From Geodermatophilus telluris (GTDB lineage: Bacteria; Actinomycetota; Actinomycetes; Mycobacteriales; Geodermatophilaceae): a DNA stretch of 64,000 bases. The position numbers and the translations under genes were made by a program. The notes beneath the pieces are model-generated. The model was not told the origin of the DNA and did no database searches. It saw only the letters and a program-made list of their open reading frames with translations. The number at the start of each line of letters is the position of its first letter. Within the stretch, counting starts at the first letter, position 1. Positions 17,547 to 54,004 of the stretch are shown piece by piece. The stretch spans positions 744,001-808,000 of the forward strand of contig NZ_FMZF01000002.1 of assembly GCF_900102745.1 (NCBI RefSeq), read 5' to 3'.

Positions 17547-17939
17547 TCAGAAGGCGTCCCCGGTCCGCCAGGCCATCTCCTGCAGGGTCAGCGTGTTGCC
17601 GTCGGGGTCGGCGAACCCGGCGTAGCGGACCCCGCCGCCCACGTCGACGACCTCGCCGACCTCCACCCCGCGGGCCACCAGGTCGGCGCGGGCCGCCTCG
17701 ACGTCGGCGACCACGAGGTGCAGGCCGCGGACGGTCCCGGGGGTCCCCTCGTAGGCGGGGACCCCGGTGCCGAAGCCGATCGAGCAGGCCGAGCCCGGCG
17801 GGGTCACCTGGACGACGCGGACGCCGTCGGCCGGCCGCACGTCGACGTCCTCGGTGCAGCCGAGCCGGTCGACGTAGAACGCCTTGGCGCGGTCGACGTC
17901 GGCGACCGGGACCGGCACCAGTTCCAGCTTCATCTGCAC
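17547..17939 (-). CDS. VOC superfamily (glyoxalase/bleomycin-resistance-like) protein
   Basis: 130 residues in the paired beta-alpha-beta-beta-beta arrangement: LELVPVPVADVDRAKAFYVDRLGC opens the first module and GLHLVVADVEAARADLVARGVEV the second, closing with YAGFADPDGNTLTLQEM. Such proteins are metal-dependent lyases or dioxygenases, or ligand-binding proteins; the activity cannot be told. The GTG at 17939 has GAGGAG six bases upstream; ATG 17933 is the alternative. It lies 55 bases after the last gene of the nine-gene operon on the same strand and may be read with it. Confidence 0.85.
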   Translation of the reverse strand: MQMKLELVPVPVADVDRAKAFYVDRLGCTEDVDVRPADGVRVVQVTPPGSACSIGFGTGVPAYEGTPGTVRGLHLVVADVEAARADLVARGVEVGEVVDVGGGVRYAGFADPDGNTLTLQEMAWRTGDAF

Positions 17940-17994: not shown

Positions 17995-18705
17995 TCACCG
18001 GTGCCGACCGGCCAGCTCCCGGGCCCGTGTGTCGCCGAGCAGCACCTCGGGCAGCCCGGCCAGCGCCGCGCGCATCCCGTCGGCCCCGCCGAACTGGAAG
18101 CCGAGCTGGGTCGTGTAGCAGGCGCAGGCGTCGGCCCGCCGGACGTGGTCCTGCGGCAGCTCGACCGGGGTCAGCCCGGCCGGCAGGTCGGGCCCGGGGA
18201 CGGCGGCCGGGTCGCGCAGCACGTAGGGCGAGTCGCGCCACCACAGCACCGGGCGGCCGGTGCCGGCGACGGCGCGCAGCACCTGCAGGTGGTCGACGTG
18301 ACCGCCCAGCGCCTGTGGGGCCAGCCACAGGTCGCCGGGCAGGCCGGCCAGCGCCGCCCGCACGTCCCGCCACGCGTCGTCGTGGGGGTGCACGCCGGCG
18401 AACAGGTCGGCCGCGCTGTCGTACCCGCGGTGCGGGGCCTCGGGCAGGTCCAGGTGCAGCGGCGTGGCGCCCAGCACCGCCATCGCGGCGGCGTCCTCGT
18501 CGCGGCGGAGGGACATGTAGTCGACGTCGGCCGGCAGTCCCTTGTCCAGCTGGCAGGCCAGCGCGAAGCCCTCGGGGTCGGGCACGCTGCGGGTGAAGCA
18601 GGTGACCACGGTGACCTCGTGCCCGGCGTCGGCGAGCGCGGCCAGCGTGCCGCCGACGGAGAACGCGGCGTCGTCGAGGTGCGGGCTGACCGCGGTCACC
18701 CTCAC
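17995..18705 (-). CDS. PIG-L family deacetylase (MshB-like paralogue)
   Basis: 236 residues. VSPHLDDAAFSVGGTLAAL near the N-terminus holds the HxDD zinc/catalytic motif (family A-H-P-D-D) and GGHVDHLQV supplies the HxxH-type ligand. Members remove N-acetyl groups from GlcNAc-containing conjugates such as GlcNAc-inositol. A separate, full mshB lies at 53108, so this copy probably acts on another substrate. The GTG start overlaps the glycosyltransferase stop as GTGA (18702-18705). It is the last gene of the coupled operon. Confidence 0.9.
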   Translation of the reverse strand: MRVTAVSPHLDDAAFSVGGTLAALADAGHEVTVVTCFTRSVPDPEGFALACQLDKGLPADVDYMSLRRDEDAAAMAVLGATPLHLDLPEAPHRGYDSAADLFAGVHPHDDAWRDVRAALAGLPGDLWLAPQALGGHVDHLQVLRAVAGTGRPVLWWRDSPYVLRDPAAVPGPDLPAGLTPVELPQDHVRRADACACYTTQLGFQFGGADGMRAALAGLPEVLLGDTRARELAGRHR

Positions 18706-19910
18706 AGCAGGTGCGCCGCGCTCCGGAACCGGCAGGAGAGGTCCACCTCCGGGGGCATCGTCCAGGCGTGCGACGGCGTCGTCCCGGCCACGGCGCGGTA
18801 CACGTCGTCGATCGCGCGGGCCAGCACCGGCCACGAGTACAGCCGGCGCACCTCCTCCAGCGCCGTCGTCGCCAGCCGTTCGCGCAGCGCGCCGTCGCCG
18901 AGCAGCCGGTCCAGCGCGGCCCGCAGCCCCGCGACGTCGCCCGGCGCGTGCAGCAGGCCGTTCTCCCCGTGCCGCAGGCAGTCGACGACGCCGACCGAGT
19001 CGGTGCTCACCGTGGGCAGCCCGCTGGCCATCGCCTCGAGCAGCGTGTTGGAGAAGCCCTCGCTGTAGGTCGGGCTCACGAACACGTCGGCCGAGCGGTA
19101 CACCGCGGGCGCCTCGTCGGGCGGGACGTAGCCGAGGAACGTCGTCCGCCCGTCGGCCCGTGCCCTCGCCTCGTCGAGGTCGGGTCCGATGCCGGAGACG
19201 ACCAGCCGGACGCCGTCGGGCAGCGCCTCCAGCAGGTCGAGCACGCCCTTGCGGCGGTCGACGCGGCCGTGGAACAGCAGCACCGGCGGGTCCTGCAGCG
19301 CGCCCAGCGGCCGCTCGGCCGGGGTGAACCGGCGGGTGTCCGTGGCGCCCGGGACGATCGTGAACCGCGCCGGGTCGCTGCCGAGGTTGCCCACCACCTC
19401 GTCGCGGAAGCTGGCGCTGCCGATGAGCACCGCCGAGGAGGCGTCGACGACGGCGCGCATCGCGTGCGCGTGGGTCGTGCAGCAGGTGCCCACCCAGTGC
19501 CCGTCGCCGCCCTGGATGCTCACCACCGCCGGCAGCCCGGTCTTCCGCGCTGCGGCCAGCACCGCCAGCCCGGGCGGGTAGCCGTACTGGGCGTGCAGCA
19601 CGTCGAACGGGCGCTCGCGGTGCAGGCCGACGACCGTGCGGACGATCTCCGCGGTGTCGCCCTCCCAGTCGGCCGGGACGACGGTCTCGCCCCGGCTGGG
19701 CAGCGCGTGCACCTCGACACCGGCGGGCACCCGGTCGGCCGGGGGCGGGCCGCCGCCGTAGACGCGGGTGCCGGCCTCGTCGTCGCGGTACTGGCTGACC
19801 AGCACCACCTCGTGGCCGAGCGCCACGAGCTCGCGCAGCAGGTTCTCCGCGTAGACGCTCATCCCGCTGACCGCCGGCCAGTAGCGGCGGCTGACGAAGC
19901 AGATCCTCAC
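18702..19910 (-). CDS. GT4 family glycosyltransferase
   Basis: 402 residues. GT-B fold retaining enzyme: the N-terminal domain begins RICFVSRRYWPAVSGMSVYAENLLRELVALGHEV, and the nucleotide-sugar domain contains VLLFHGRVDRRKGVLDLLEAL and the EX7E motif in SEGFSNTLLEAMASGLPTVST. MshA of mycothiol synthesis belongs to this family, transferring GlcNAc to inositol phosphate. The acceptor here is unknown, but the inositol-phosphate-synthase paralogue in the same operon makes a cyclitol acceptor plausible. GTG 19910 overlaps the previous stop as GTGA. Confidence 0.92.
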   Translation of the reverse strand: MRICFVSRRYWPAVSGMSVYAENLLRELVALGHEVVLVSQYRDDEAGTRVYGGGPPPADRVPAGVEVHALPSRGETVVPADWEGDTAEIVRTVVGLHRERPFDVLHAQYGYPPGLAVLAAARKTGLPAVVSIQGGDGHWVGTCCTTHAHAMRAVVDASSAVLIGSASFRDEVVGNLGSDPARFTIVPGATDTRRFTPAERPLGALQDPPVLLFHGRVDRRKGVLDLLEALPDGVRLVVSGIGPDLDEARARADGRTTFLGYVPPDEAPAVYRSADVFVSPTYSEGFSNTLLEAMASGLPTVSTDSVGVVDCLRHGENGLLHAPGDVAGLRAALDRLLGDGALRERLATTALEEVRRLYSWPVLARAIDDVYRAVAGTTPSHAWTMPPEVDLSCRFRSAAHLL

Positions 19911-20758
19911 GCGGCCGCCACCCCCTGCGTCTCCGCCTTCCGGAGCGTGGCCATCGACCGGGGCACCATCTCGTGCGCGCGGTGCCCGTCGCGGGAGAGC
20001 TCCAGGGTGACCAGCCGGTCGTAGGAGGCGTCCCGGAGCGCGCGCAGCACCGCCGGCAGGTCGACGTCGCCCTCGTCGAGCGGCAGGTGGTCGTGCACGC
20101 CGCGGCGCATGCCCTCGACGGCGACCGTGCCCAGGTGCGGCGCGAAGCGGGTCACCGCCTCCTCCGGCGCGTACGCCCCCGCGACGACGCAGTGCCCGGT
20201 GTCCAGCGCCAGCGTGGTCCCGTGCGCCTCGGCGGCCAGCCGGGCCCAGCCGTCGCAGTCCTCCACCAGCATCCCGGGCTCGGGCTCCACGGCCAGGGCG
20301 TAGGAGCGCCCGCCGTGGCTGTCGACCAGCGCCCGCACGCCGTCGACCAGCCAGCCCCAGGCGGCGTCGCGGTCGACACCCGGCTTCGGCACCCCGGCCC
20401 AGAAGCTGACCGCCTCCGCGTCGAGCACCTCCGCCAGGTCGCAGGCCAGCCGCAGGTAGGCCAATCGCCGCGCCCGCCCCTCGGCCGACGCGGTGATCAG
20501 CGTGGGCTCGTGCTTGACCCGGGGGTCCAGCAGGAAGCGGGCGCCGGTCTCCACCACCACGCCCAGCCCGAGCTCGTCGCACCGCCGGCGCACCGCCTCG
20601 GCCTGCCGGTGGGCGTCGTCGGCGAACGGGTCGAGGTGGACGACGTCGAGGGTGAGCGCCACGCCGGCGTAGCCGCAGTCGGCGAGGAAGGGGAGCGCGT
20701 CCGACAGCCGGTGCGAGGTGAGCCCGTTGGTGTTGTAGGCGTAGCGGAGGTCCGTCAC
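19907..20758 (-). CDS. Sugar phosphate isomerase/epimerase-like TIM barrel
   Basis: 283 residues. Xylose-isomerase-like AP endonuclease 2 fold: YAYNTNGLTSHRLSDALPFLADCGYAGVALTLD at the N-terminus, VVVETGARFLLDP, then metal-site carboxylates and His in ALAVEPEPGMLVED, LALDTGHCVVAG, HLGTVAVEGMRRGVHDHLPLDEGDVD and LVTLELSRDGH. These match IolE/Hyi-type epimerases acting on inositol derivatives or ketoses. The step in this pathway is not known. GTG 20758 overlaps the YcaO stop (GTGA at 20755-20758), and its own stop overlaps the glycosyltransferase start. Confidence 0.9.
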   Translation of the reverse strand: MTDLRYAYNTNGLTSHRLSDALPFLADCGYAGVALTLDVVHLDPFADDAHRQAEAVRRRCDELGLGVVVETGARFLLDPRVKHEPTLITASAEGRARRLAYLRLACDLAEVLDAEAVSFWAGVPKPGVDRDAAWGWLVDGVRALVDSHGGRSYALAVEPEPGMLVEDCDGWARLAAEAHGTTLALDTGHCVVAGAYAPEEAVTRFAPHLGTVAVEGMRRGVHDHLPLDEGDVDLPAVLRALRDASYDRLVTLELSRDGHRAHEMVPRSMATLRKAETQGVAAA

Positions 20759-22230
20759 CTCTCGAGGACCTCCGCGACCACGTGCCGGCCCGGCTCCCGG
20801 TACAGCGCGTACAGCGCCCCCACCCGCCGGTCGGCGCCCGCGCGGTCGAACCAGGCCGGCCCGCCCAGGCGCTCCTCGGCCGCGGCGGTCAGGTGCACCC
20901 GCGCCCAGCCGCCGGGGTCGCCGCCCACCGCGGCCAGGGGAGGGTGGGGATCACCGGAGCGCTCGACCAGCCGGCGCACCCCGCGCTCGCCGATCCGGCC
21001 GTAGGACATCGTCTCGACCTCCAGGCCGGTCGCCAGCACCTTGGCCGCGACGGCGTCACCGGCCGACGGCTGCAGCTCCACGAGCACGTCGTGCCCGGCG
21101 GCCTGCACCGCGCCGACCACGTGCGCGTGCAGGTCGTCCCCGCGCCAGGTGGGCAGGCCGCTCAGCGGCACGGTGGAGCGCCGCGACAGCACGGTGTCCT
21201 GCAGCAGGTCGACCAGCGCGCTCGTGCCCATCCGGGTCCAGTCGAGCATCGCCTGCAGCGCGCGGTCCTCCTCGACCAGCCGCTCCGGCGGGTGCCCGCC
21301 GCGCCAGTGCTCCAGGTAGCCCGGCGGCGTCGCGGGCAGGACGACGTCGAACGGCCCGTGCATGAACGCCTTGCGGCTGCGCGCCGAGGCGAACTCGTGC
21401 AGCGCCTTGCGGACGGCGGTGTCGCGGTCGGGGTGGGCAGCCTCCCCGCACGCCGTGGCCATCACCGGCACCGGCTCCGAGCCGTCCCGCGAGCAGCCGA
21501 CGGCGTACACGTCGACGACGCCGAACTCCGTCGAGGCGAGCTTGACCACCACGTCGATGCCCGCGGCGTCGAGCCGGTCGAGCAGCGCCCGCGCGTCGGG
21601 GTCGGCGATCCCGTCGAGGTCGACGACGACGCCGCGGTCCATGGCGCGGAAGGCGGTGGCGTTGCCGTCGCGCTGCAGCACCTCGAGCAGCGCGTGGGTG
21701 ACCGCGCGGTCGGCGTCGAAGGCCGCGCCTTGCCCGTTGGTGATGACCGTGGTCAGCCAGCCGCCGGGCGGGGGAGCGCCGGGCAGGTCGTCGGGCGCCG
21801 ACGCCACCAGCTCGGCGGGCACCTGCACGGTCTCGCCGTCGCGCAGCCGGGTCATCGGCAGCCACTGCAGCGGCCGGTCGTCGTCGTAGGGGCTGCCCGC
21901 CTCCAGGCAGAGCTCGCGCGGGTCGGCCACCCGGTCCCGGCCGTACCGGCGGGTCATCTCGGCGTACGAGCCCTCCTCGCGGGAGACGCCCTGGTGCGCG
22001 CGCAGCGACAGGGCCATCTCGGCCATCTCGCCCATCGCCCCGGTGCGGGCCTCCTCGCGGGTGGCGCCGTAGCCCAGCCCGCTGCCTCCCGGGTGCAGCT
22101 CCGAGGGCGGCAGCACCGCCGAGTGCAGCGGTACGTCGAGGACGTCGATGCCCTCGATCGCGAAGTCCTCGACCGGCGTCGGGAAGCTGTCGCGGTAGCG
22201 CTGCGACGGCGTCACGTCGACGGCGGTCAC
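20755..22230 (-). CDS. YcaO-domain protein
   Basis: 491 residues. YcaO enzymes use ATP to activate amide carbonyls, making azolines, thioamides or amidines. The three conserved blocks of the fold are visible: GYGATREEARTGAMGEMAE (about residues 50-68), NGQGAAFDADRAVTHALLEVLQRD (about 170-193) and ACGEAAHPDRDTAVRKALHEF (about 270-290), carrying the Glu/Gln residues that bind Mg-ATP. There is no C-terminal PxPxP tail, and no TfuA-, E1-like or precursor-peptide gene is next to it, so a RiPP role is not supported. It may act on a small amide. GTGA overlaps at both ends. Confidence 0.9.
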   Translation of the reverse strand: MTAVDVTPSQRYRDSFPTPVEDFAIEGIDVLDVPLHSAVLPPSELHPGGSGLGYGATREEARTGAMGEMAEMALSLRAHQGVSREEGSYAEMTRRYGRDRVADPRELCLEAGSPYDDDRPLQWLPMTRLRDGETVQVPAELVASAPDDLPGAPPPGGWLTTVITNGQGAAFDADRAVTHALLEVLQRDGNATAFRAMDRGVVVDLDGIADPDARALLDRLDAAGIDVVVKLASTEFGVVDVYAVGCSRDGSEPVPVMATACGEAAHPDRDTAVRKALHEFASARSRKAFMHGPFDVVLPATPPGYLEHWRGGHPPERLVEEDRALQAMLDWTRMGTSALVDLLQDTVLSRRSTVPLSGLPTWRGDDLHAHVVGAVQAAGHDVLVELQPSAGDAVAAKVLATGLEVETMSYGRIGERGVRRLVERSGDPHPPLAAVGGDPGGWARVHLTAAAEERLGGPAWFDRAGADRRVGALYALYREPGRHVVAEVLER

Positions 22231-23201
22231 AGCTCGGCCAGCGGGACGGGGGCGGCGTCCGGCGGCCCGGACAGCAGCCGCTGCACCAGGTGCACGACGT
22301 GGTCGGTGGTGATCCCCGGGACCATCTCGAACGGCGTCGCGACCACCTCGAAGTCCAGCTCCGCGACGACGGCGAGCATCTCCCGCAGCTCGCCGTGCGA
22401 CAGCGGGATCTGCGCGTGGAACGCCTTGTGCGCCGACAGCGCCACCGGGTCGCCGTCGGGGGAGAGGTCGACCTTCAGCGAGTCGCCGCAGAAGAGGATC
22501 CCGCGGCGGGAGTCGTGCAGCACCGAGTGCCCGGGGAAGTGCCCGCCGGTGCGGTGCAGCGTGAGGTCGGGTGCGAGGGTCAGCACGTCGTCGGCCGGCC
22601 AGGTGACCCGGAAGGCCTTCGTCCACACGAGGTCGTGCACGTTGACGCAGACCACCCGCGGCTCGAGCTCCTGCTGCAGCTGCCACAGCGCGCCGTAGCC
22701 GTGCACGTGGCTCGAGGCCAGCACGGGGAAGCCGCCCCTCTCGGCGGCCATCCGGCGCAGCTCGGCGAGCATGTCGGCGGTGTACCAGGGCGCGCACTCG
22801 AAGCCGACCAGGCCGGTGTCGGTCTCGATCACCCAGCCGCGGCTGTCCAGGCCGAAGCGCGGCTCGGTGCCGAACTCGGTGACGCCGTCCACCGGGGCCG
22901 GCCGCCAGAAGCCGGTGACCAGCTCGTCGGCCTGCTTGTCGGTCACGAACTCGAAGCCGTGCTCGGGCAGCGCGTTGCGCACGTCGGCGCACACCGGGCA
23001 GACCACGGGCCCGGGCGCCGGCCAGCGCTGCCAGTGCCCGCAGTTGGTGCAGGCGTAGGCGGGCAGGTCGGGCAGCAGGCCGCGGTAGGGGTTGGTGTCG
23101 ACCCCTCCCTGACGAGCCTGGCTGGACACGTGGCGGGCGCCGTCGTCGGCGGCGGGGTCGGTGGCCCGGTCGATGGCACCGGGCACGTCGGGCGAGCTCA
23201 C
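22227..23201 (-). CDS. Metallo-beta-lactamase-fold hydrolase with N-terminal zinc ribbon
   Basis: 324 residues. Residues about 50-72 form a rubredoxin-like knuckle (CTNCGHWQRW...VCPVC). The rest is an MBL fold: VIETDTGLVGFECAPW, then SSHVHGYGALW where HxHxDH is expected, TGGHFPGHSVLH, FCGDSLKVD, and a C-terminal ATPFEMVPGITTDH. The first metal motif is reduced to HxHG with Asp-His missing, so the metal site or activity may differ from typical MBLs. The GTG at 23201 overlaps the dehydrogenase stop. Role in the operon unknown. Confidence 0.87.
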   Translation of the reverse strand: MSSPDVPGAIDRATDPAADDGARHVSSQARQGGVDTNPYRGLLPDLPAYACTNCGHWQRWPAPGPVVCPVCADVRNALPEHGFEFVTDKQADELVTGFWRPAPVDGVTEFGTEPRFGLDSRGWVIETDTGLVGFECAPWYTADMLAELRRMAAERGGFPVLASSHVHGYGALWQLQQELEPRVVCVNVHDLVWTKAFRVTWPADDVLTLAPDLTLHRTGGHFPGHSVLHDSRRGILFCGDSLKVDLSPDGDPVALSAHKAFHAQIPLSHGELREMLAVVAELDFEVVATPFEMVPGITTDHVVHLVQRLLSGPPDAAPVPLAEL

Positions 23202-24184
23202 GGGGTCCCTCTCTCCAGAGCGGTGAGGAGCAGGCGGTGCAGGGCGAGGTCACGGGCGGGGTCGAACGGCCACCGAGCGCGGCCCGCGACCGCGTCGGTG
23301 AAGGCGGCGAACTGTGCGGTGAACGGCGGGGTGTCGGCGAACGGCACGTCGACCGGGTCGGGGCGGTACAGCGTCAGGGAGCCTCCCGCCGTCTGGCCCA
23401 TGGTGTCGACGGCGACCGCCATGCCGCGGGTGCCGACCACCTCCAGGCGGCGGCGGGGCAGCGCGTCGGGGGTGTTGAACGCGACGTGCAGGCTCACCAG
23501 CACGCCGGAGTCGGTCGTCCCGGTGAGGAGCGCGCCGTCGTCGACGCCGTAGTCGTGCACCCGGGTCTGCAGCAGCGCCGACAGCGCGGTGACGTCCTCG
23601 CCGAGCAGCGTGCCGGTGAGGTCCAGGCCGTGTGGGGCGAGGTCGATGGCCGCACCGCCGCCGGCGCGGGCCGGGTCGACCCGCCAGTTGTCGTGCGGGC
23701 GGCCGTCGGGCGTCCAGTCGCCGGGCAGCCAGCAGCAGTAGACGATCCGCACCGCGGTGACCGTGCCCAGCTCCGGGACCAGCTCGCGCAGCCGCACGTG
23801 CGCGGGGTGCCAGCGCTGGTCGTAGGCCGTGCCGAGGAGGACGCCGGCCCGCGTGCCCGCCTCGACCAGCGCCTGCGCGTCGCCGACGTCGGCGGCCAGC
23901 GGCTTCTCGCACAGCACCGCCTTCCCGGCCGCGGCGGCCGCCTCGACCACCTGCCGGTGCCCGGCGTTCGGGACGGCCACGTAGACGGCGTCGAGGCCGG
24001 GGGTGGCGAGGAACCCCGCGAGGTCGGTCGTGCGCCGGGGGCCCTCCACCGGCACCCGGTCCAGCGCCGCGGGGTCGAGGTCGTGCAGCGCGACCAGCCG
24101 CGCGTCGGGCACGTCGAGCAGTGCGGGCAGCGCGTGGTCGCGGGCCACCCAGCCGCAGCCGGCGACGCCCCACCCGACGCTCAC
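23198..24184 (-). CDS. Gfo/Idh/MocA family oxidoreductase
   Basis: 328 residues. NAD(P)-binding N-terminus VGWGVAGCGWVARDHALPAL, the family signature EKPLA in KAVLCEKPLAADVGDAQAL, and the C-terminal sheet domain with the catalytic-type GGGAAIDLAPHGLDLTGTLLGED (D and H). The family includes inositol dehydrogenases and sugar oxidases, so oxidation of an inositol or sugar intermediate is reasonable here. The GTG at 24184 lies in the 19-bp duplicated sequence. Without that duplication the start would overlap the methyltransferase stop as GTGA, like all other junctions of the operon. Confidence 0.92.
   Translation of the reverse strand: MSVGWGVAGCGWVARDHALPALLDVPDARLVALHDLDPAALDRVPVEGPRRTTDLAGFLATPGLDAVYVAVPNAGHRQVVEAAAAAGKAVLCEKPLAADVGDAQALVEAGTRAGVLLGTAYDQRWHPAHVRLRELVPELGTVTAVRIVYCCWLPGDWTPDGRPHDNWRVDPARAGGGAAIDLAPHGLDLTGTLLGEDVTALSALLQTRVHDYGVDDGALLTGTTDSGVLVSLHVAFNTPDALPRRRLEVVGTRGMAVAVDTMGQTAGGSLTLYRPDPVDVPFADTPPFTAQFAAFTDAVAGRARWPFDPARDLALHRLLLTALERGTP
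24166..24184. repeat. 19-bp direct repeat, left copy
   Basis: CGCCCCACCCGACGCTCAC, identical to 24261-24279. This copy holds the first codons of the Gfo/Idh gene. Confidence 0.95.
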
Positions 24185-24198
24185 GCCGCCCCCTCCGT

Positions 24199-24262
24199 CG
24201 AGATCACGTGATCTCGCTCGCGGGGAGCCGTACGGACGGTCGAGATCGCGCGATCTCGACCG
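24199..24262. repeat. Palindromic insert (MITE- or REP-like) between two operon genes
   Basis: Two perfect palindromes: 18 bp at 24199-24216 with centre GATCACGTGATC, and 26 bp at 24237-24262 with centre GATCGCGCGATC. Both have CGAGATC...GATCTCG arms, giving the element near-symmetrical ends. With the 19-bp duplication it makes a 95-bp unit separating genes that would otherwise overlap. It may also act as a transcription terminator inside the operon. Confidence 0.8.
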
Positions 24263-24279
24263 CCCCACCCGACGCTCAC
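24261..24279. repeat. 19-bp direct repeat, right copy
   Basis: Identical to 24166-24184. This copy contains the stop of the methyltransferase and a now unused GTGAGC start. Confidence 0.95.
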
Positions 24280-25301
24280 CAGGCCTCCGGGAGGTCGACC
24301 AGCAGCCGGCGGCGGGCGGCGTCGGCGGGCAGTGGGTCGGGCCAGCGCTCCGGCAGGTACGACGAGCGCGGCCCGTACTCGGCGGCGTAGCGGTCGCTCG
24401 GCCAGGTGCGCACGCCGTCGCGGTAGAGCGGGTTGGGCGACAGCGGCGGCAGCGGCTCTCCCAGGTCGGCGGGCGCGGGCCCCAGCGGGTCACCGGCCAC
24501 CAGCGCCACCGCCTCGCTGGCGTGCAGGTCGGCGGGGGCGGCCGGCCGCGGCGGGCGGCCCTCGAGCAGCGAGCGGGTCAGCTCGTCGTCGTCGTAGAGC
24601 AGGCCGGTGCCCAGCACCTCGGCGTAGCCCTCCGGCGTCAGCGGCTGCCCGTGCGGGTCGGCCACGTGCGCGTGCCCGACGACGACGGTGCCGCCGTCCC
24701 CGGCCAGCGCGCGCATCGCCGCCGCGGCCGCGGGCTTGTCGCGCAGGAAGTAGAAGGCGTCGTGGCACATGACGTAGGCCGGGACGCCGACGGCGAGGTC
24801 GGGCGCCGCGGTCAGGTCGGCGCACACGTAGCGGGCGTCCGGGCAGACGAACCGCCGGGCCAGCCAGAGCTTGGCCCACACGACGTCGACGCCGAGCAGG
24901 TCGCCCGCCCCGCGCCGGGACAGCTCGCGCAGGTGCGCGCCGGTCCCGCAGGCGACGTCGACCACCGGGCGCCGCCCGGGCCAGTGCTGCTGCAGCAGGG
25001 CGAGCCCGGCCAGGTGGGTGGGGTCCGACCAGCGGTGGGCGAAGTAGTCGGCCACCCGCCCCATGCCGAGGAGGTCCATGGCCTCGCGGAGCGTGCGCGC
25101 GGCGGGGACGCGGGCGAGCTGCTCGGGCGGCGGCGGCGGCTCGGTCCACCAGTCGTCGGCGTCGGCGAGCAGCAGCACCCGGGCCCGGTCGGTCTCCCCG
25201 GCGGCCAGCAGCCCGGCGACCTCGTCGCGCAGGTCGTCCCGGCCCGCCCGGGCGAAGGGGATCCCGTCGACGACGGGCGCGTCGAGGAGCAGGCCGGTCA
25301 C
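24276..25301 (-). CDS. Class I SAM-dependent methyltransferase
   Basis: 341 residues. Motif I is VVDVACGTGAHLRELSRRG (about residues 113-131), followed by DLLGVDVVWAKLWLARR and the acidic-aromatic region YVMCHDAFYFLRDKP. An N-terminal extension of about 100 residues (LADADDWWTEPPPPPEQLARVPAARTLREAMDLLGMGRVADYFAHRW) and a C-terminal stretch rich in Pro, Tyr and Trp are unusual additions. The acceptor is unknown. The GTG at 25301 overlaps the HD-like gene as GTGA. Its stop lies in the right copy of the 19-bp repeat. Confidence 0.9.
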   Translation of the reverse strand: MTGLLLDAPVVDGIPFARAGRDDLRDEVAGLLAAGETDRARVLLLADADDWWTEPPPPPEQLARVPAARTLREAMDLLGMGRVADYFAHRWSDPTHLAGLALLQQHWPGRRPVVDVACGTGAHLRELSRRGAGDLLGVDVVWAKLWLARRFVCPDARYVCADLTAAPDLAVGVPAYVMCHDAFYFLRDKPAAAAAMRALAGDGGTVVVGHAHVADPHGQPLTPEGYAEVLGTGLLYDDDELTRSLLEGRPPRPAAPADLHASEAVALVAGDPLGPAPADLGEPLPPLSPNPLYRDGVRTWPSDRYAAEYGPRSSYLPERWPDPLPADAARRRLLVDLPEAW

Positions 25302-26212
25302 AGCCCGGCCGCCGCCAGCACGTCGAGGTGGTAGCCCTGCACCGGGCCGGCGTGCACCAGCTCCAGGTCGTCGAGCGCCTGGGAGGCGGTGAACGCCGCC
25401 GCGCGCGCGTGGTGGTGCACCTGCAGCACCCGGTCGAGGACGTCGGCGGCGTGGAACGCCCGGGCCTCCGGCAGGTCGGCGCCCGGCCGCAGCGCCAGCA
25501 CCTCGCGCAGCCGGCCGGCCAGCGGGCCCGGCAGCGCCGCGAGCTCGCGCTCCTCCAGCGTCGTCACCACCCGCTCCAGCGCGTTCCCGAGCAGCACCTC
25601 GCCGGCGAACCCGGCGTCGGGCAGCACCACGTTGTGCAGGTGGTGGCCCAGGCCGAGCAGGAAGGGCCCGACCGGGTCGGCGCCCACCACCGGCGCGACG
25701 AGCGCGGCGTAGACCGCGACGGTGAGGCAGTGGTCGCCGTGGCTCTCCGGCGGTTCGACGACCACCCGCGGCTTCCCCGGCGCGGTGGCGCCGGCCCGCG
25801 GCTGGGCGTTGAGCGCGGCGGCGAGCGCCGGTGCCGGGCCGGCTGCCGGCAGCGGCCCCAGCGCCGCCCGCAGCCGTGCGCGCAGTTCCGGGTCGAGCGG
25901 GCCGGCGACCTCGTCGAAGCCCCGGCGCAGCACGTCGAGCGCCTCGGCGTCCGACAACCCGGCGGTGGTCAGGACCCCGGCGTCGATGCCGGCCAGCCGG
26001 GCGCGGGCGACGGCGGCCGCGGTCTCGGACTCCGCGACCGCGGCGACGTCCTCACCGGCCACCAGCCGCGCCCACGCGCGGGCGAAGGCCTGCTCGGCGA
26101 GCGAGCCGGGGACGCCGGCGACGCGGACGCGCTTGGCGTCGCCGATCTCGGCGAGCAGCGGCCGCAGCCCGGCGAGCGCCCGCAGCGTCCCGGGGGAGGC
26201 GAGCGCGGTCAC
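25298..26212 (-). CDS. HD-like predicted metal-dependent protein of unknown function
   Basis: 304 residues. The N-terminal third is Ala/Leu-rich helices. From about residue 168 an HD-type pattern appears: ESHGDHCLTVAVYAALVAPVVG, then LLGLGHHLHNVVLPDAGFAGE and FHAADVLDRVLQVHHHARA, with His/Asp spacing like metal-binding phosphohydrolases. Assignment to HD hydrolases is tentative. A link to EboA-like proteins, which can sit beside inositol-phosphate synthase and TIM-barrel genes, was considered but could not be shown. GTG 26212 overlaps the synthase stop (GTGA). Confidence 0.75.
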   Translation of the reverse strand: MTALASPGTLRALAGLRPLLAEIGDAKRVRVAGVPGSLAEQAFARAWARLVAGEDVAAVAESETAAAVARARLAGIDAGVLTTAGLSDAEALDVLRRGFDEVAGPLDPELRARLRAALGPLPAAGPAPALAAALNAQPRAGATAPGKPRVVVEPPESHGDHCLTVAVYAALVAPVVGADPVGPFLLGLGHHLHNVVLPDAGFAGEVLLGNALERVVTTLEERELAALPGPLAGRLREVLALRPGADLPEARAFHAADVLDRVLQVHHHARAAAFTASQALDDLELVHAGPVQGYHLDVLAAAGL

Positions 26213-27432
26213 CGGGAGGAGGCGCCGGCGGCCAGCCAGTCGAGCAGCGCGGACTCCTGCCGGTGGAAGGCGTGCTCGGGCACGCTGCCGTCGGCGGTCA
26301 TCGGGGCCTTGAAGAACCAGCCCAGCTGCCGCTGCACGCCGCCCTCGCCGCGCTGCTGCGCGAGGTCGGCGAGCCGGGCGAGCTCCACGGCCAGCGGCGC
26401 GGCCAGGATCGAGTCGCGGCACTGGAAGTCGACCTTGACCTGCATGCGCTGGCCGAGGAAGCCGACCAGGTCGATGGCGTCCCAGGCCTCCTTCTGGTCG
26501 CCGCGCGGCCGGTAGTAGTCGATGCGGACGACGTGGTCCTCGACCGGGTAGCCCAGGATCGAGTCGAGCACGCTGCCCTTGGTGTTCAGCTTGCTGGCCA
26601 GCGAGTCGGGGTCGTCGAGGGCCAGGCCGTCGCGGTTGCCGAGGATGTTGGTGGAGTACCAGCCCTCGACGGTGAGCGAGCGGGCGCGGAAGGCCGGCGC
26701 GAGGACCGTCTTCATCATCGTCTGGCCGGTCTTGCCGTCCTTGCCGGCGACCGGCACGCCGCGGGCCTCGGCGAACGCGACCAGCGCGGGGACGTCGGCG
26801 GCCAGCGACGGCGTGAAGTTCACGTAGCCGACGCCCTCGGCGATCGCGGCGTAGGCGTAGACCATCGCCGGGGTGATCGCGCGGTCGTCGGCGTCGAGCC
26901 CGGCCTCGAAGGCCTCGATCGACTGCAGGGCCGGCGCGGCCGGGTCGGGCCAGCGCTCGGTGGAGGCCAGGTTGACCAGCACCAGGCCGTCGAGGGACTC
27001 CTCCTCGCGGAAGCGGCGGAGGTCGGCGCGCACCGCGTCGACCTGCGCGCGGCGCGTCTCGGCGAGGACGACGTTGCCGCCGGTGACGTTGCGGCAGAAG
27101 TCGGCGTCCCCGGCCGCCGGCCACGGGATCACCGCCGACAGCGCCGGGCCGGCCTCCTCCAGCTGGCGGGAGTCGAGCACGCCGTGCTGCTCGGCGGCCT
27201 TGCGCAGGTCCGAGCCGTCGAGGTCCCACCCGCGGACGACCAGCGAGTCGTAGGACACCAGGCCGGTCGTCTCCTCGGCCGGACCGCCGGCGACCTCCAG
27301 CCCGGCGAGCGGCAGCCCGTCGGTGCCGGCCGCCCCGGTCCGGACCAGCTCCAGACCGGCGACGGCGGTCGTCGCGACCGCGCCCCCCAGCCCGACCACA
27401 GCGACGCCGACACGACGGGACTCCTGCGACAA
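26209..27432 (-). CDS. Inositol-3-phosphate synthase family protein
   Basis: 407 residues; the first gene of the operon. Family features: NAD-binding VAVVGLGGAVATTAVAGLELV, the conserved NLASTE, VYAYAAIAEGVGYVNFTPSLA, GKDGKTGQTMMKTVLAP, LNTKGSVLDSILGYP and DYYRPRGDQKEAWD. The family converts glucose-6-phosphate to inositol-3-phosphate through NAD-dependent oxidation and ring closure. The sequence is of the longer type, distinct from the roughly 360-residue Ino1 used for mycothiol. The only suitable start is TTG 27432, with GGGGAGG six bases upstream. The leader shows alternative hairpins. Confidence 0.9.
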   Translation of the reverse strand: MSQESRRVGVAVVGLGGAVATTAVAGLELVRTGAAGTDGLPLAGLEVAGGPAEETTGLVSYDSLVVRGWDLDGSDLRKAAEQHGVLDSRQLEEAGPALSAVIPWPAAGDADFCRNVTGGNVVLAETRRAQVDAVRADLRRFREEESLDGLVLVNLASTERWPDPAAPALQSIEAFEAGLDADDRAITPAMVYAYAAIAEGVGYVNFTPSLAADVPALVAFAEARGVPVAGKDGKTGQTMMKTVLAPAFRARSLTVEGWYSTNILGNRDGLALDDPDSLASKLNTKGSVLDSILGYPVEDHVVRIDYYRPRGDQKEAWDAIDLVGFLGQRMQVKVDFQCRDSILAAPLAVELARLADLAQQRGEGGVQRQLGWFFKAPMTADGSVPEHAFHRQESALLDWLAAGASSR

Positions 27433-53107: not shown

Positions 53108-54004
53108 GTGACCGCTGACCGCCGCATCCTGCTGGTGCACGCCCACCCCGACGACGAGACGATCAACAACGGCGCGACGATGGCGCGCTACGTCGCCGAG
53201 GGCGCCGCGGTCACGCTGCTGACCTGCACGCTGGGCGAGGAGGGCGAGGTCCTCGTCCCCGAGCTCGAGCTGCTCGCCCCGGAGCACGCCGACCAGCTCG
53301 GCGGCTACCGGATCGCCGAGCTGCGCGCCGCGATGGAGGCCCTCGGGGTCACCGACTGGCGCTTCCTCGGCGGGCCGGGCCGCTACCGCGACTCCGGGAT
53401 GATGGGGACGCCGGCCAACGACAAGCCCCGCGCGTTCTGGCGGGCCGACCTCGACGAGGCGGTGGCGCACGCGGTCGCCGTCGTCCGGGAGGTCCGGCCG
53501 CAGGTCGTGGTCACCTACGACGAGAACGGCGGCTACGGCCACCCCGACCACATCCAGGCCCACCGGGTCGCGATGGCCGCCGTCGACCGCGCCGCCGACC
53601 CCGGCTACCGGCCCGACCTCGGGCCGGCCTGGGACGTCGCCAAGGTCTACTGGTGCTGCGTGCCGCGCTCGGTGCTGCGCGAGGGCCTCGAGGCGCTCGC
53701 CGCGCTGGGGGAGGACGCGCCCTTCGCGCAGCTCGGCGAGGTCGACGACGTCCCCTTCGCGGTCCCCGACGAGCTGGTCACCGCCGCCGTCGACGGCCGC
53801 GCGCACGCCGGTGCGAAGGACGCCGCCATGCGCGCGCACGCCACCCAGATCACCGTCGACGGACCGTTCTTCGCGCTGTCGAACGACCTCGGCCAGGAGG
53901 TCCTCGGCGTCGAGCACTACCGGCTGGTCCGCGGGCAGCGCGGCCCCGCCGGACAGGCGCCGCACGGGTGGGAGGACGACCTGTTCGCCGGCCTGACCGG
54001 ATGA
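53108..54004 (+). CDS. mshB: GlcNAc-inositol deacetylase of mycothiol biosynthesis
   Basis: 298 residues. Removes acetyl from GlcNAc-Ins to give GlcN-Ins. [22 protein letters not shown] carries the AHPDDE zinc motif, [20 protein letters not shown] the second zinc region, and [13 protein letters not shown] plus the C-terminal [16 protein letters not shown] are MshB-specific. Position before a small membrane protein and near fdxC agrees with other actinobacteria. GTG 53108 lies 8 bases after GAGGAT. The start of the next gene overlaps its stop (ATGA). Confidence 0.95.

What the first reader, a model, noticed from the sequence alone, without database searches (positions are those of the whole stretch)
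17995..27432. Nine-gene coupled operon: inositol-phosphate synthase + GT4 + PIG-L + YcaO, a parallel to mycothiol synthesis
Seen: nine minus-strand genes in the order inositol-3-phosphate synthase, HD-like, SAM methyltransferase, Gfo/Idh, MBL-fold, YcaO, TIM-barrel isomerase, GT4, PIG-L. Seven of the eight junctions are 4-nt GTGA overlaps and the eighth was interrupted by an insert. Known: Ino1, MshA (GT4) and MshB (PIG-L) make GlcN-Ins, and YcaO proteins activate amides with ATP. The true mshB is at 53108. Inferred: this is a dedicated pathway for a cyclitol-glycoside with amide-derived (amidine, thioamide or azoline) or related chemistry. I know of no described pathway with this gene set.
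Basis: partly seen in the sequence, partly recalled or inferred. Interest (0 to 1): 0.9.

Follow-up and report, generated by a model that had tools for sequence, protein, structure and literature searches.

The report
Mobile nine-gene operon, unknown metabolite
Nine bacterial genes that probably build an unknown sugar-and-inositol-like compound are kept together, in nearly the same order, in bacteria of three phyla, and several of the enzymes carry unusual changes in their active sites, so the operon points to undescribed chemistry that can be tested directly.

Summary
In detail: nine minus-strand genes (Ino1, HD-like, methyltransferase, Gfo/Idh, MBL, YcaO, TIM barrel, GT4, PIG-L), seven of eight junctions GTGA overlaps, the eighth holding a short palindromic repeat element. 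Among 72,556 plasmid records, YcaO and the HD-like gene pick the same four: Roseomonas (9 of 9), two Methylobacterium and Hymenobacter (8 of 9 each). The unit spans three phyla. Closeness to mycothiol synthesis is weak: the operon enzymes stay far below the mycothiol model cut-offs, and five operon-bearing genomes have no MshA or MshC over cut-off. Most catalytic positions are invariant across phyla, but three enzymes depart from their families: YcaO has Gln at E. coli Glu202, the HD dyad is His-His, and MBL lacks the HxHxDH motif. Best reading: a self-contained pathway to a soluble cyclitol-aminosugar metabolite with ATP-dependent carbonyl activation by YcaO. Substrates and product are unknown. 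An inositol-derived UV absorber is possible but unproven.

The parts
26209..27432 (-). Gene 1: inositol-3-phosphate synthase-type enzyme (Ino1), start uncertain
   Evidence: PF07994/PF01658; nearest solved structure 7nwr, 394 bits; K281, K285, K314, K375 kept
25298..26212 (-). Gene 2: two-part protein, C-half an HD-type fold with His-His in place of the His-Asp dyad
24276..25301 (-). Gene 3: SAM-dependent methyltransferase; not found in L106 and in the Hymenobacter locus
   Evidence: PF13649
24185..24260 (.). Insert at the MT/Gfo junction: two palindromes, flanked by 19-nt direct repeats (24166-24184, 24261-24279); member of a genome-wide repeat
23198..24184 (-). Gene 4: Gfo/Idh/MocA oxidoreductase
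   Evidence: PF01408/PF22725; nearest 1,5-anhydro-D-fructose reductase 2glx, 192 bits; K94, D181, H185
22227..23201 (-). Gene 5: MBL-fold protein with N-terminal C-x2-C...C-x2-C zinc-ribbon/rubredoxin-like part; not found in the two Methylobacterium loci
   Evidence: PF00753
20755..22230 (-). Gene 6: YcaO with Gln186 at the position of E. coli Glu202
   Evidence: PF02624
19907..20758 (-). Gene 7: xylose-isomerase-like TIM barrel (distantly IolE/IolI-like)
   Evidence: PF01261; IolE 9zmu 45 bits; E158, D186, H189, H222, E253 invariant in 20 of 20
18702..19910 (-). Gene 8: GT4-type (retaining, from the family) glycosyltransferase
   Evidence: PF13692/PF00534; 6kih 125 bits, 3c4q 108 bits; EX7E glutamates E284, E292
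17995..18705 (-). Gene 9: PIG-L family N-deacylase
   Evidence: PF02585; glycopeptide deacetylases Dbv21/Orf2 about 106-108 bits, MshB 25

Best explanation
It is a self-contained, horizontally transferred operon for one soluble specialised metabolite built from a cyclitol and an amino sugar. Inferred order of steps: Ino1 turns glucose 6-phosphate into inositol 3-phosphate; the HD-fold protein removes a phosphate or does a related metal-dependent step; Gfo/Idh oxidises a ring hydroxyl and the IolE/IolI-like TIM barrel isomerises or dehydrates the ketone; GT4 adds an N-acylated sugar with retention; PIG-L frees its amine; YcaO uses ATP to activate a carbonyl (amide, or vinylogous acid/amide) so that a nitrogen, sulfur or oxygen nucleophile replaces it; the methyltransferase and MBL protein are tailoring steps, each missing in some lineages. 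Shown here: the gene set, its conservation as a unit over three phyla, conserved catalytic positions, and the departures in YcaO, HD and MBL. Inferred: the reaction order, every substrate, and the product.
For: Conserved linkage: 30 of 38 examined loci hold all nine (the loci had been found through YcaO, gene 2 or MBL, so presence of that one gene is by selection). Of the other eight, L034, L040, L050 and L059 end at a contig edge; L044 is an 8.5-kb MAG contig with only an inverted Ino1 fragment and no PIG-L before its end; L043 and L060 are one Goekera locus without Ino1; L106 ends at a contig edge and also lacks the methyltransferase. Independent queries agree: YcaO and gene 2 hit the same 4 of 72,556 plasmid records; MBL in a phylum sample and operon-type Ino1 in all 39 held genomes of f70 (at least 699 bits) hit the same six f70 genomes; the five class genomes with a strong gene-2 match are all among the nine with this YcaO. 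In the four plasmid loci each gene found is 39-68% identical to the window's; distances among up to 20 loci correlate between genes at 0.82-0.95, as expected for a unit, though common descent alone also gives correlation. A dedicated Ino1 is kept although eight of ten genomes tested, the window's own among them, have a further copy; in G607 and G628 it is the only one. No transporter, NRPS or PKS gene is among the nine. The catalytic positions I checked are invariant in TIM and GT4, and apart from gaps in incomplete pieces and one His-to-Met in the Hymenobacter Gfo piece, also in Ino1, Gfo and PIG-L.
Against: No product, substrate or expression data. The GT4 acceptor region is not MshA-like, so the glycosyl acceptor need not be inositol phosphate. 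YcaO lacks the Glu202 of E. coli YcaO, so its ATP chemistry may be altered or lost. The same YcaO clade also occurs alone: 10 of 22 order genomes with a YcaO match show no other operon gene in about 1.5 kb on either side, seven of these none in about 20 kb, and three class genomes (G243, G469, G393) likewise none in 20 kb. HD and MBL carry non-standard metal sites and may not be hydrolases. Goekera lacks Ino1 at the locus. Hymenobacter lacks MT and has Gfo and GT4 in pieces.
Confidence: 0.55

Rival explanations
1. A mycothiol-like low-molecular-weight thiol: GT4 and PIG-L make a glucosaminyl-inositol and YcaO with its partners installs sulfur or an amide.
For: Ino1, GT4 and PIG-L are the gene classes of GlcN-Ins synthesis; nearest solved YcaO is MJ1094 (6pe3, 83 bits), and the McrA-thioamidation model TIGR03266 scores 70.8 bits; five operon-bearing genomes have no MshA or MshC over cut-off.
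Against: Operon enzymes score far below the mycothiol models; MshA acceptor segments (recalled) absent; PIG-L nearest to glycopeptide deacetylases; five of five class genomes carry both the operon and MshA/MshC; the azoline-type SagD model scores higher than the thioamidation model (81.5 bits; both far below their cut-offs); no cysteine ligase or sulfur carrier among the nine; no TfuA match in 10 of 10 genomes.
Confidence: 0.12
2. A YcaO pathway acting on a peptide or protein (RiPP or protein modification) whose product is glycosylated.
For: The characterised YcaO enzymes described in the passages I saw act on peptides or a ribosomal protein (PMC4603692; PMC13063428).
Against: Overlapping genes leave hardly any room for a precursor inside the operon; flanking genes differ between the Roseomonas, Hymenobacter and Methylobacterium loci; no partner (C/ThiF) protein among the nine; no TfuA match in 10 genomes. 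A distant precursor is not excluded.
Confidence: 0.1
3. An inositol- or hexosamine-containing cell-envelope glycolipid or polysaccharide.
For: Ino1 is nearest to 7nwr, recalled as the Bacteroides enzyme that feeds inositol lipids; GT4 and PIG-L are common in envelope synthesis.
Against: No phosphatidyltransferase, prenyltransferase, flippase or polymerase among the nine; a Gfo/TIM pair and YcaO do not fit.
Confidence: 0.1
4. A catabolic operon for a cyclitol glycoside (IolG/IolE-like Gfo and TIM with a deacylase).
For: Gfo and TIM enzymes are typical of inositol and keto-glycoside breakdown (relatives listed).
Against: Contains a synthase (Ino1), a glycosyltransferase and a YcaO; no uptake system or glycosidase among the nine.
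Confidence: 0.05

Closest known systems
Mycothiol biosynthesis (Ino1, MshA, MshB, MshC, MshD)
   Same: Ino1-type synthase, GT4 and PIG-L deacylase
   Different: Below the cut-offs of the models tested; no MshC/MshD among the nine; adds HD, MT, Gfo, MBL, YcaO, TIM; found in five genomes without MshA/MshC over cut-off
ebo/edb cluster (EboA-F; PMC5133447, passages seen)
   Same: Compact multi-phylum operon of unknown product with a sugar-phosphate cyclase and a xylose-isomerase-like TIM barrel
   Different: No UbiA, TatD, DHQS-type synthase or phosphodiesterase; has YcaO, GT4, PIG-L, Gfo, MBL
YcaO cyclodehydratase/thioamidation systems (TOMM, TfuA-YcaO, McrA, uL16)
   Same: YcaO domain and most positions aligned with acidic ATP-site residues of E. 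coli YcaO
   Different: No precursor or partner in the operon, no TfuA; Gln at E. coli Glu202 throughout the clade; sits in a sugar/cyclitol operon
Glycopeptide pseudoaglycone deacetylases (Dbv21, Orf2)
   Same: Nearest solved relatives of gene 9
   Different: No glycopeptide genes among the nine
YfbR/HDDC2 HD phosphohydrolases
   Same: Fold of the C-half of gene 2
   Different: HD dyad is His-His; the position of YfbR Glu72 (numbering recalled) is Asn; extra N-terminal half

Membership tests
Mycothiol biosynthesis | Ino1 of the mycothiol type (TIGR03450) | tested here: not met
   42.1 bits, cut-off 638
Mycothiol biosynthesis | MshA-type GT4 (TIGR03449) | tested here: not met
   73.3 bits, cut-off 462.5; alignment with own MshA
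Mycothiol biosynthesis | MshB-type deacetylase (TIGR03445) | tested here: not met
   16.5 bits, cut-off 224.35
Mycothiol biosynthesis | MshC/MshD enzymes in the operon | tested here: not met
   none among the nine
ebo cluster | EboB TatD, EboC UbiA, EboD DHQS-type, EboF phosphodiesterase | tested here: not met
   Pfam domains of the nine; definitions from PMC5133447 passages
ebo cluster | EboA homology of gene 2 | not tested
   gene 2 has no Pfam/NCBIfam match; no direct comparison with an EboA sequence was made
TOMM/RiPP YcaO cluster | C protein, precursor peptide or TfuA with the YcaO gene | tested here: not met
   a distant precursor cannot be excluded
YcaO superfamily | YcaO domain over the Pfam cut-off | tested here: met
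   172.7 bits, cut-off 25.7
YcaO superfamily | Glu at E. coli position 202 | tested here: not met
   Gln in 15 of 15 operon and 8 of 8 stand-alone sequences; Gln in 20 of 20 sequences, four plasmid loci included. That this Glu defines the superfamily is my assumption
Inositol-phosphate synthase | domains and four active-site lysines | tested here: met
   catalytic lysine positions partly recalled
HD phosphohydrolase (YfbR type) | fold | tested here: met
HD phosphohydrolase (YfbR type) | His-Asp dyad | tested here: not met
   H190-H191 in 19 of 19
MBL hydrolases | HxHxDH motif (recalled) | tested here: not met
   H165-x-H167-x-Y/F-G in 18 of 18

The most novel reading that the evidence does not exclude
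The operon makes a UV-absorbing cyclohexenone/imine compound on an inositol route, a functional counterpart of mycosporines: Ino1 and Gfo make an inosose, the IolE-like TIM barrel dehydrates it to a conjugated enolone, and a new class of YcaO (Gln186) activates that vinylogous acid with ATP so that the amine of the PIG-L-freed amino sugar condenses, giving the chromophore. It could be the source of the polar UVA absorbers of Methylobacterium (methylobamine). Pointers only: many hosts named here (Geodermatophilus, Blastococcus, Modestobacter, Methylobacterium, Hymenobacter) are light- and desiccation-exposed bacteria (general knowledge), the Roseomonas copy lies near two spore-photoproduct-lyase genes, and the M. 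aquaticum copy beside a uracil-DNA-glycosylase-family gene. Against: the Roseomonas strain comes from a tick, I made no test of habitat, and the structure of methylobamine was not available to me.
Probability: 0.12. Interest if true: 0.92.

Novelty: categorically new. Interest (0 to 1): 0.8.

Why it matters
The YcaO substrates named in the papers I saw are peptides and proteins; a 2015 survey stated that the substrates of non-TOMM (stand-alone) and TfuA-associated YcaO proteins were unknown (PMC4603692, passages). Here a distinct YcaO clade with a changed active-site position is locked into a small carbohydrate/cyclitol operon that also occurs on plasmids of two further phyla, which makes 'what else can YcaO chemistry do' directly testable with nine genes. 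Three of the nine enzymes carry invariant, non-canonical active sites, so new enzyme chemistry is likely whatever the product is.

Tried and rejected
Direct copy of mycothiol synthesis: rejected on model scores, GT4 and PIG-L relatives and genome content. Ebo cluster: rejected on gene content. Chance neighbourhood: rejected. Phage carriage: no YcaO match at E 1e-10 in 50,697 phage records.

Stand-alone YcaO relatives gave no clue. Of ten such order loci, seven were looked at in about 20 kb (L052-L058), and three class loci as well (L169, L171, L172); none holds another operon gene. The neighbours that I scanned include GGDEF, adenosine deaminase, solute-binding protein and polysaccharide deacetylase families and, in L049, a GT61, a GT2 and a Cys/Met PLP enzyme.

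Weak matches were followed in part and dropped. Sixteen genomes had 28-37-bit matches to gene 2; three neighbourhoods checked hold no other operon gene. Eight genomes had MBL matches of about 77-101 bits; six neighbourhoods checked lack the operon, though L109 holds distant GT4 genes. The plasmid search with MBL gave 159 records, of which Roseomonas and Hymenobacter are operon loci; the other 18 of the 20 rows shown are 28-31% identical, and 139 rows were not shown.

HD-type oxygenase for gene 2: PhnZ appears only at Foldseek E 0.99; the best fold matches are phosphohydrolases, but a shared fold shows no function. Literature: ten searches. YcaO, inositol and PIG-L together: 0 papers. Longer answers were capped (25 of 135 listed, 12 of 145, 12 of 361, 10 of 112), and I saw listings, plus passages of PMC5133447, PMC4148983, PMC4603692, PMC13063428, PMC9664959, PMC8210630, PMC8561711, PMC12573535 and PMC10875822. 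Only open-licence PubMed Central papers are held, so other papers and preprints may describe the gene set.
Full report
WHAT IS THERE. The window lies in an unnamed 4.8-Mb genome; the named relatives whose YcaO is 92-93% identical are Geodermatophilus species, so the host is probably Geodermatophilus. Nine genes occupy 17995-27432 on the minus strand. Seven of eight junctions are GTGA overlaps. The MT/Gfo junction is interrupted by a 76-nt stretch between two 19-nt direct repeats; the first copy still reads GTGA at the methyltransferase stop, which suggests that this junction was once an overlap too (inference from sequence). The insert contains a pair of CGAGATCNCGNGATCTCG palindromes. The pattern occurs at 26 sites in the genome, 12 pairs 41-42 nt apart and two singles, against 0 for the reversed control pattern. 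All nine reading frames are open, so the operon looks intact.

IS IT A UNIT? The YcaO protein has a match in 22 of 200 genomes of the order and in 25 named loci: Geodermatophilus, Blastococcus, Modestobacter, Goekera, a Geodermatophilaceae bacterium and a Pseudonocardia MAG. Profiles of gene 2 and of MBL found more in the class and phylum. I examined 38 loci with profiles of all nine proteins; 30 hold all nine in nearly constant order, with YcaO and TIM swapped in L098 and L099 and Gfo and MBL in L105. The eight incomplete loci are L034, L040, L050 and L059 (contig edges), L044 (8.5-kb MAG contig, inverted Ino1 fragment, no PIG-L before its end), L043 and L060 (the same Goekera locus, no Ino1) and L106 (contig edge, and no methyltransferase between gene 2 and Gfo). 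In the family, gene 2 occurs in 32 of 112 genomes, so distribution is patchy. The loci were chosen because one operon gene matched; the independent checks are that the five class genomes with a strong gene-2 match are all among the nine genomes with this YcaO, and that MBL and operon-type Ino1 find the same six f70 genomes.

OUT OF THE PHYLUM. A protein search of 72,556 plasmid records with YcaO gave four records: Roseomonas haemaphysalidis p546-2, Methylobacterium bullatum plasmid 1, M. aquaticum MA-22A pMaq22A_1p and Hymenobacter volaticus plasmid unnamed6. A separate search with gene 2 of Roseomonas gave exactly the same four. Roseomonas holds all nine in the same order. Both Methylobacterium loci hold eight, without MBL; Hymenobacter holds eight, without the methyltransferase and with Gfo and GT4 each in two pieces. 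Identity to the window proteins is 39-68% for each gene found in these four. Pairwise distances among up to 20 loci correlate between genes at 0.82-0.95; common descent alone would also give such a correlation. Two exceptions suggest exchange of single genes: YcaO of L044 is 76% identical to the window while its other genes are 53-67%, and YcaO of L050 is 53% while its others are 69-79%. Seven genes (Ino1, gene 2, Gfo, YcaO, TIM, GT4, PIG-L) are common to all four plasmid loci.

THE YCAO. Nearest solved relative is MJ1094 (83 bits); NCBIfam gives the SagD model 81.5 bits and the McrA-thioamidation model 70.8, both far below cut-off. Aligned to E. coli YcaO, the positions of Glu75, Glu78, Asn181, Glu199, Glu290 and Arg295 are kept, but Glu202 is Gln in 15 of 15 operon proteins and 8 of 8 stand-alone relatives, and in 20 of 20 sequences. 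In E. coli, an E202A variant is shown in a co-expression figure, and replacement of ATP-binding residues gave incomplete thioamidation of uL16 (PMC13063428, passages; the figure itself was not seen). Which positions bind ATP is otherwise recalled. No TfuA match was found in 10 of 10 genomes. So the clade is recognisable and conserved, and may not do textbook YcaO catalysis unchanged.

RELATION TO MYCOTHIOL. MshA and MshC over cut-off occur in 5 of 5 class-level genomes tested, the window's own among them, and in 0 of 5 f70 genomes that carry the operon. The f70 genomes do have weaker matches: G775 a full-length 323-bit match to the MshA model (cut-off 462.5), and all five a match of 256-291 bits to the MshC model (cut-off 485), which I take for cysteinyl-tRNA synthetase because the class genomes have a second match of the same strength (inference). 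The sixth operon-bearing f70 genome, G717, was not tested. A further Ino1 exists in eight of the ten genomes; in G607 and G628 the operon copy is the only one. In f70, 6 of 39 genomes have the operon-type Ino1 at 699 bits or more. The f70 family may be Rubrobacteraceae: G607 has four contigs, 3.4 Mb in all with one of 2,960,953 bases, which fits the sizes given for R. radiotolerans DSM 5868 (PMC4148983, passages). This identification is inference.

MOST LIKELY WORKING. The gene set reads as synthesis: a cyclitol phosphate made on the spot, redox and isomerisation of the ring or sugar, glycosylation with an N-acylated sugar, deacylation, and one ATP-driven carbonyl activation. No step beyond domain identity and residue conservation is shown. 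Methylation and the MBL step are missing in some lineages, so they are probably late. The nine include no regulator, transporter or precursor peptide. Flanking genes differ between the Roseomonas, Hymenobacter and Methylobacterium loci; in the actinobacterial loci I compared flanks only by length and strand.

NOVELTY. My paper searches showed no description of this gene set (aimed at it; ten searches in all, lists capped, open-licence papers only). Because the operon is a variant of no characterised pathway that I could name, I rate it categorically new at the level of the pathway, while all single enzymes belong to known superfamilies. The UV-screen reading rests on host habitat (general knowledge, with a tick isolate against it), DNA-repair-type genes near two plasmid loci and the known UVA absorbers of Methylobacterium (cited in PMC9664959 and PMC12573535, passages); it is a lead, not a result.

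Noticed in passing
24166-24279: Short repeat element: two CGAGATCNCGNGATCTCG palindromes 42 nt apart, flanked here by 19-nt direct repeats; 26 sites in the genome, 12 pairs at 41-42 nt and two singles. It looks like a small mobile or REP-like element; other species show gaps of roughly 50-260 nt at various operon junctions (gene starts by my own simple caller).
   Followed up: partly
L044 4351-5916; L050 8728-10164: YcaO identity to the window is out of step with the other operon genes (76% against 53-67%; 53% against 69-79%), as if YcaO alone had been exchanged.
   Followed up: partly
L176 16227-19898: In Roseomonas haemaphysalidis p546-2 the operon is followed by mdoH and two spore photoproduct lyase family genes, then repB and repA.
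   Followed up: no
L049 6078-11894: A second YcaO of the same clade (61% identical, with the Gln) sits among a Cys/Met PLP enzyme, a GT61 and a GT2, about 7 kb from the start of an operon copy that is cut by the contig end.
   Followed up: partly
L052-L058, L169, L171, L172: Stand-alone YcaO genes of the same clade in other actinobacteria with unrelated neighbours; the Gln was checked in L052-L058 only.
   Followed up: partly
L178 10096-15602: In Hymenobacter volaticus Gfo and GT4 each appear in two pieces and the methyltransferase is missing; the copy may be decaying or the record may hold errors.
   Followed up: no
17547-17939: A VOC/glyoxalase-family gene lies downstream on the same strand; among the named loci it has a match only in L047, so it is not part of the unit.
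   Followed up: yes
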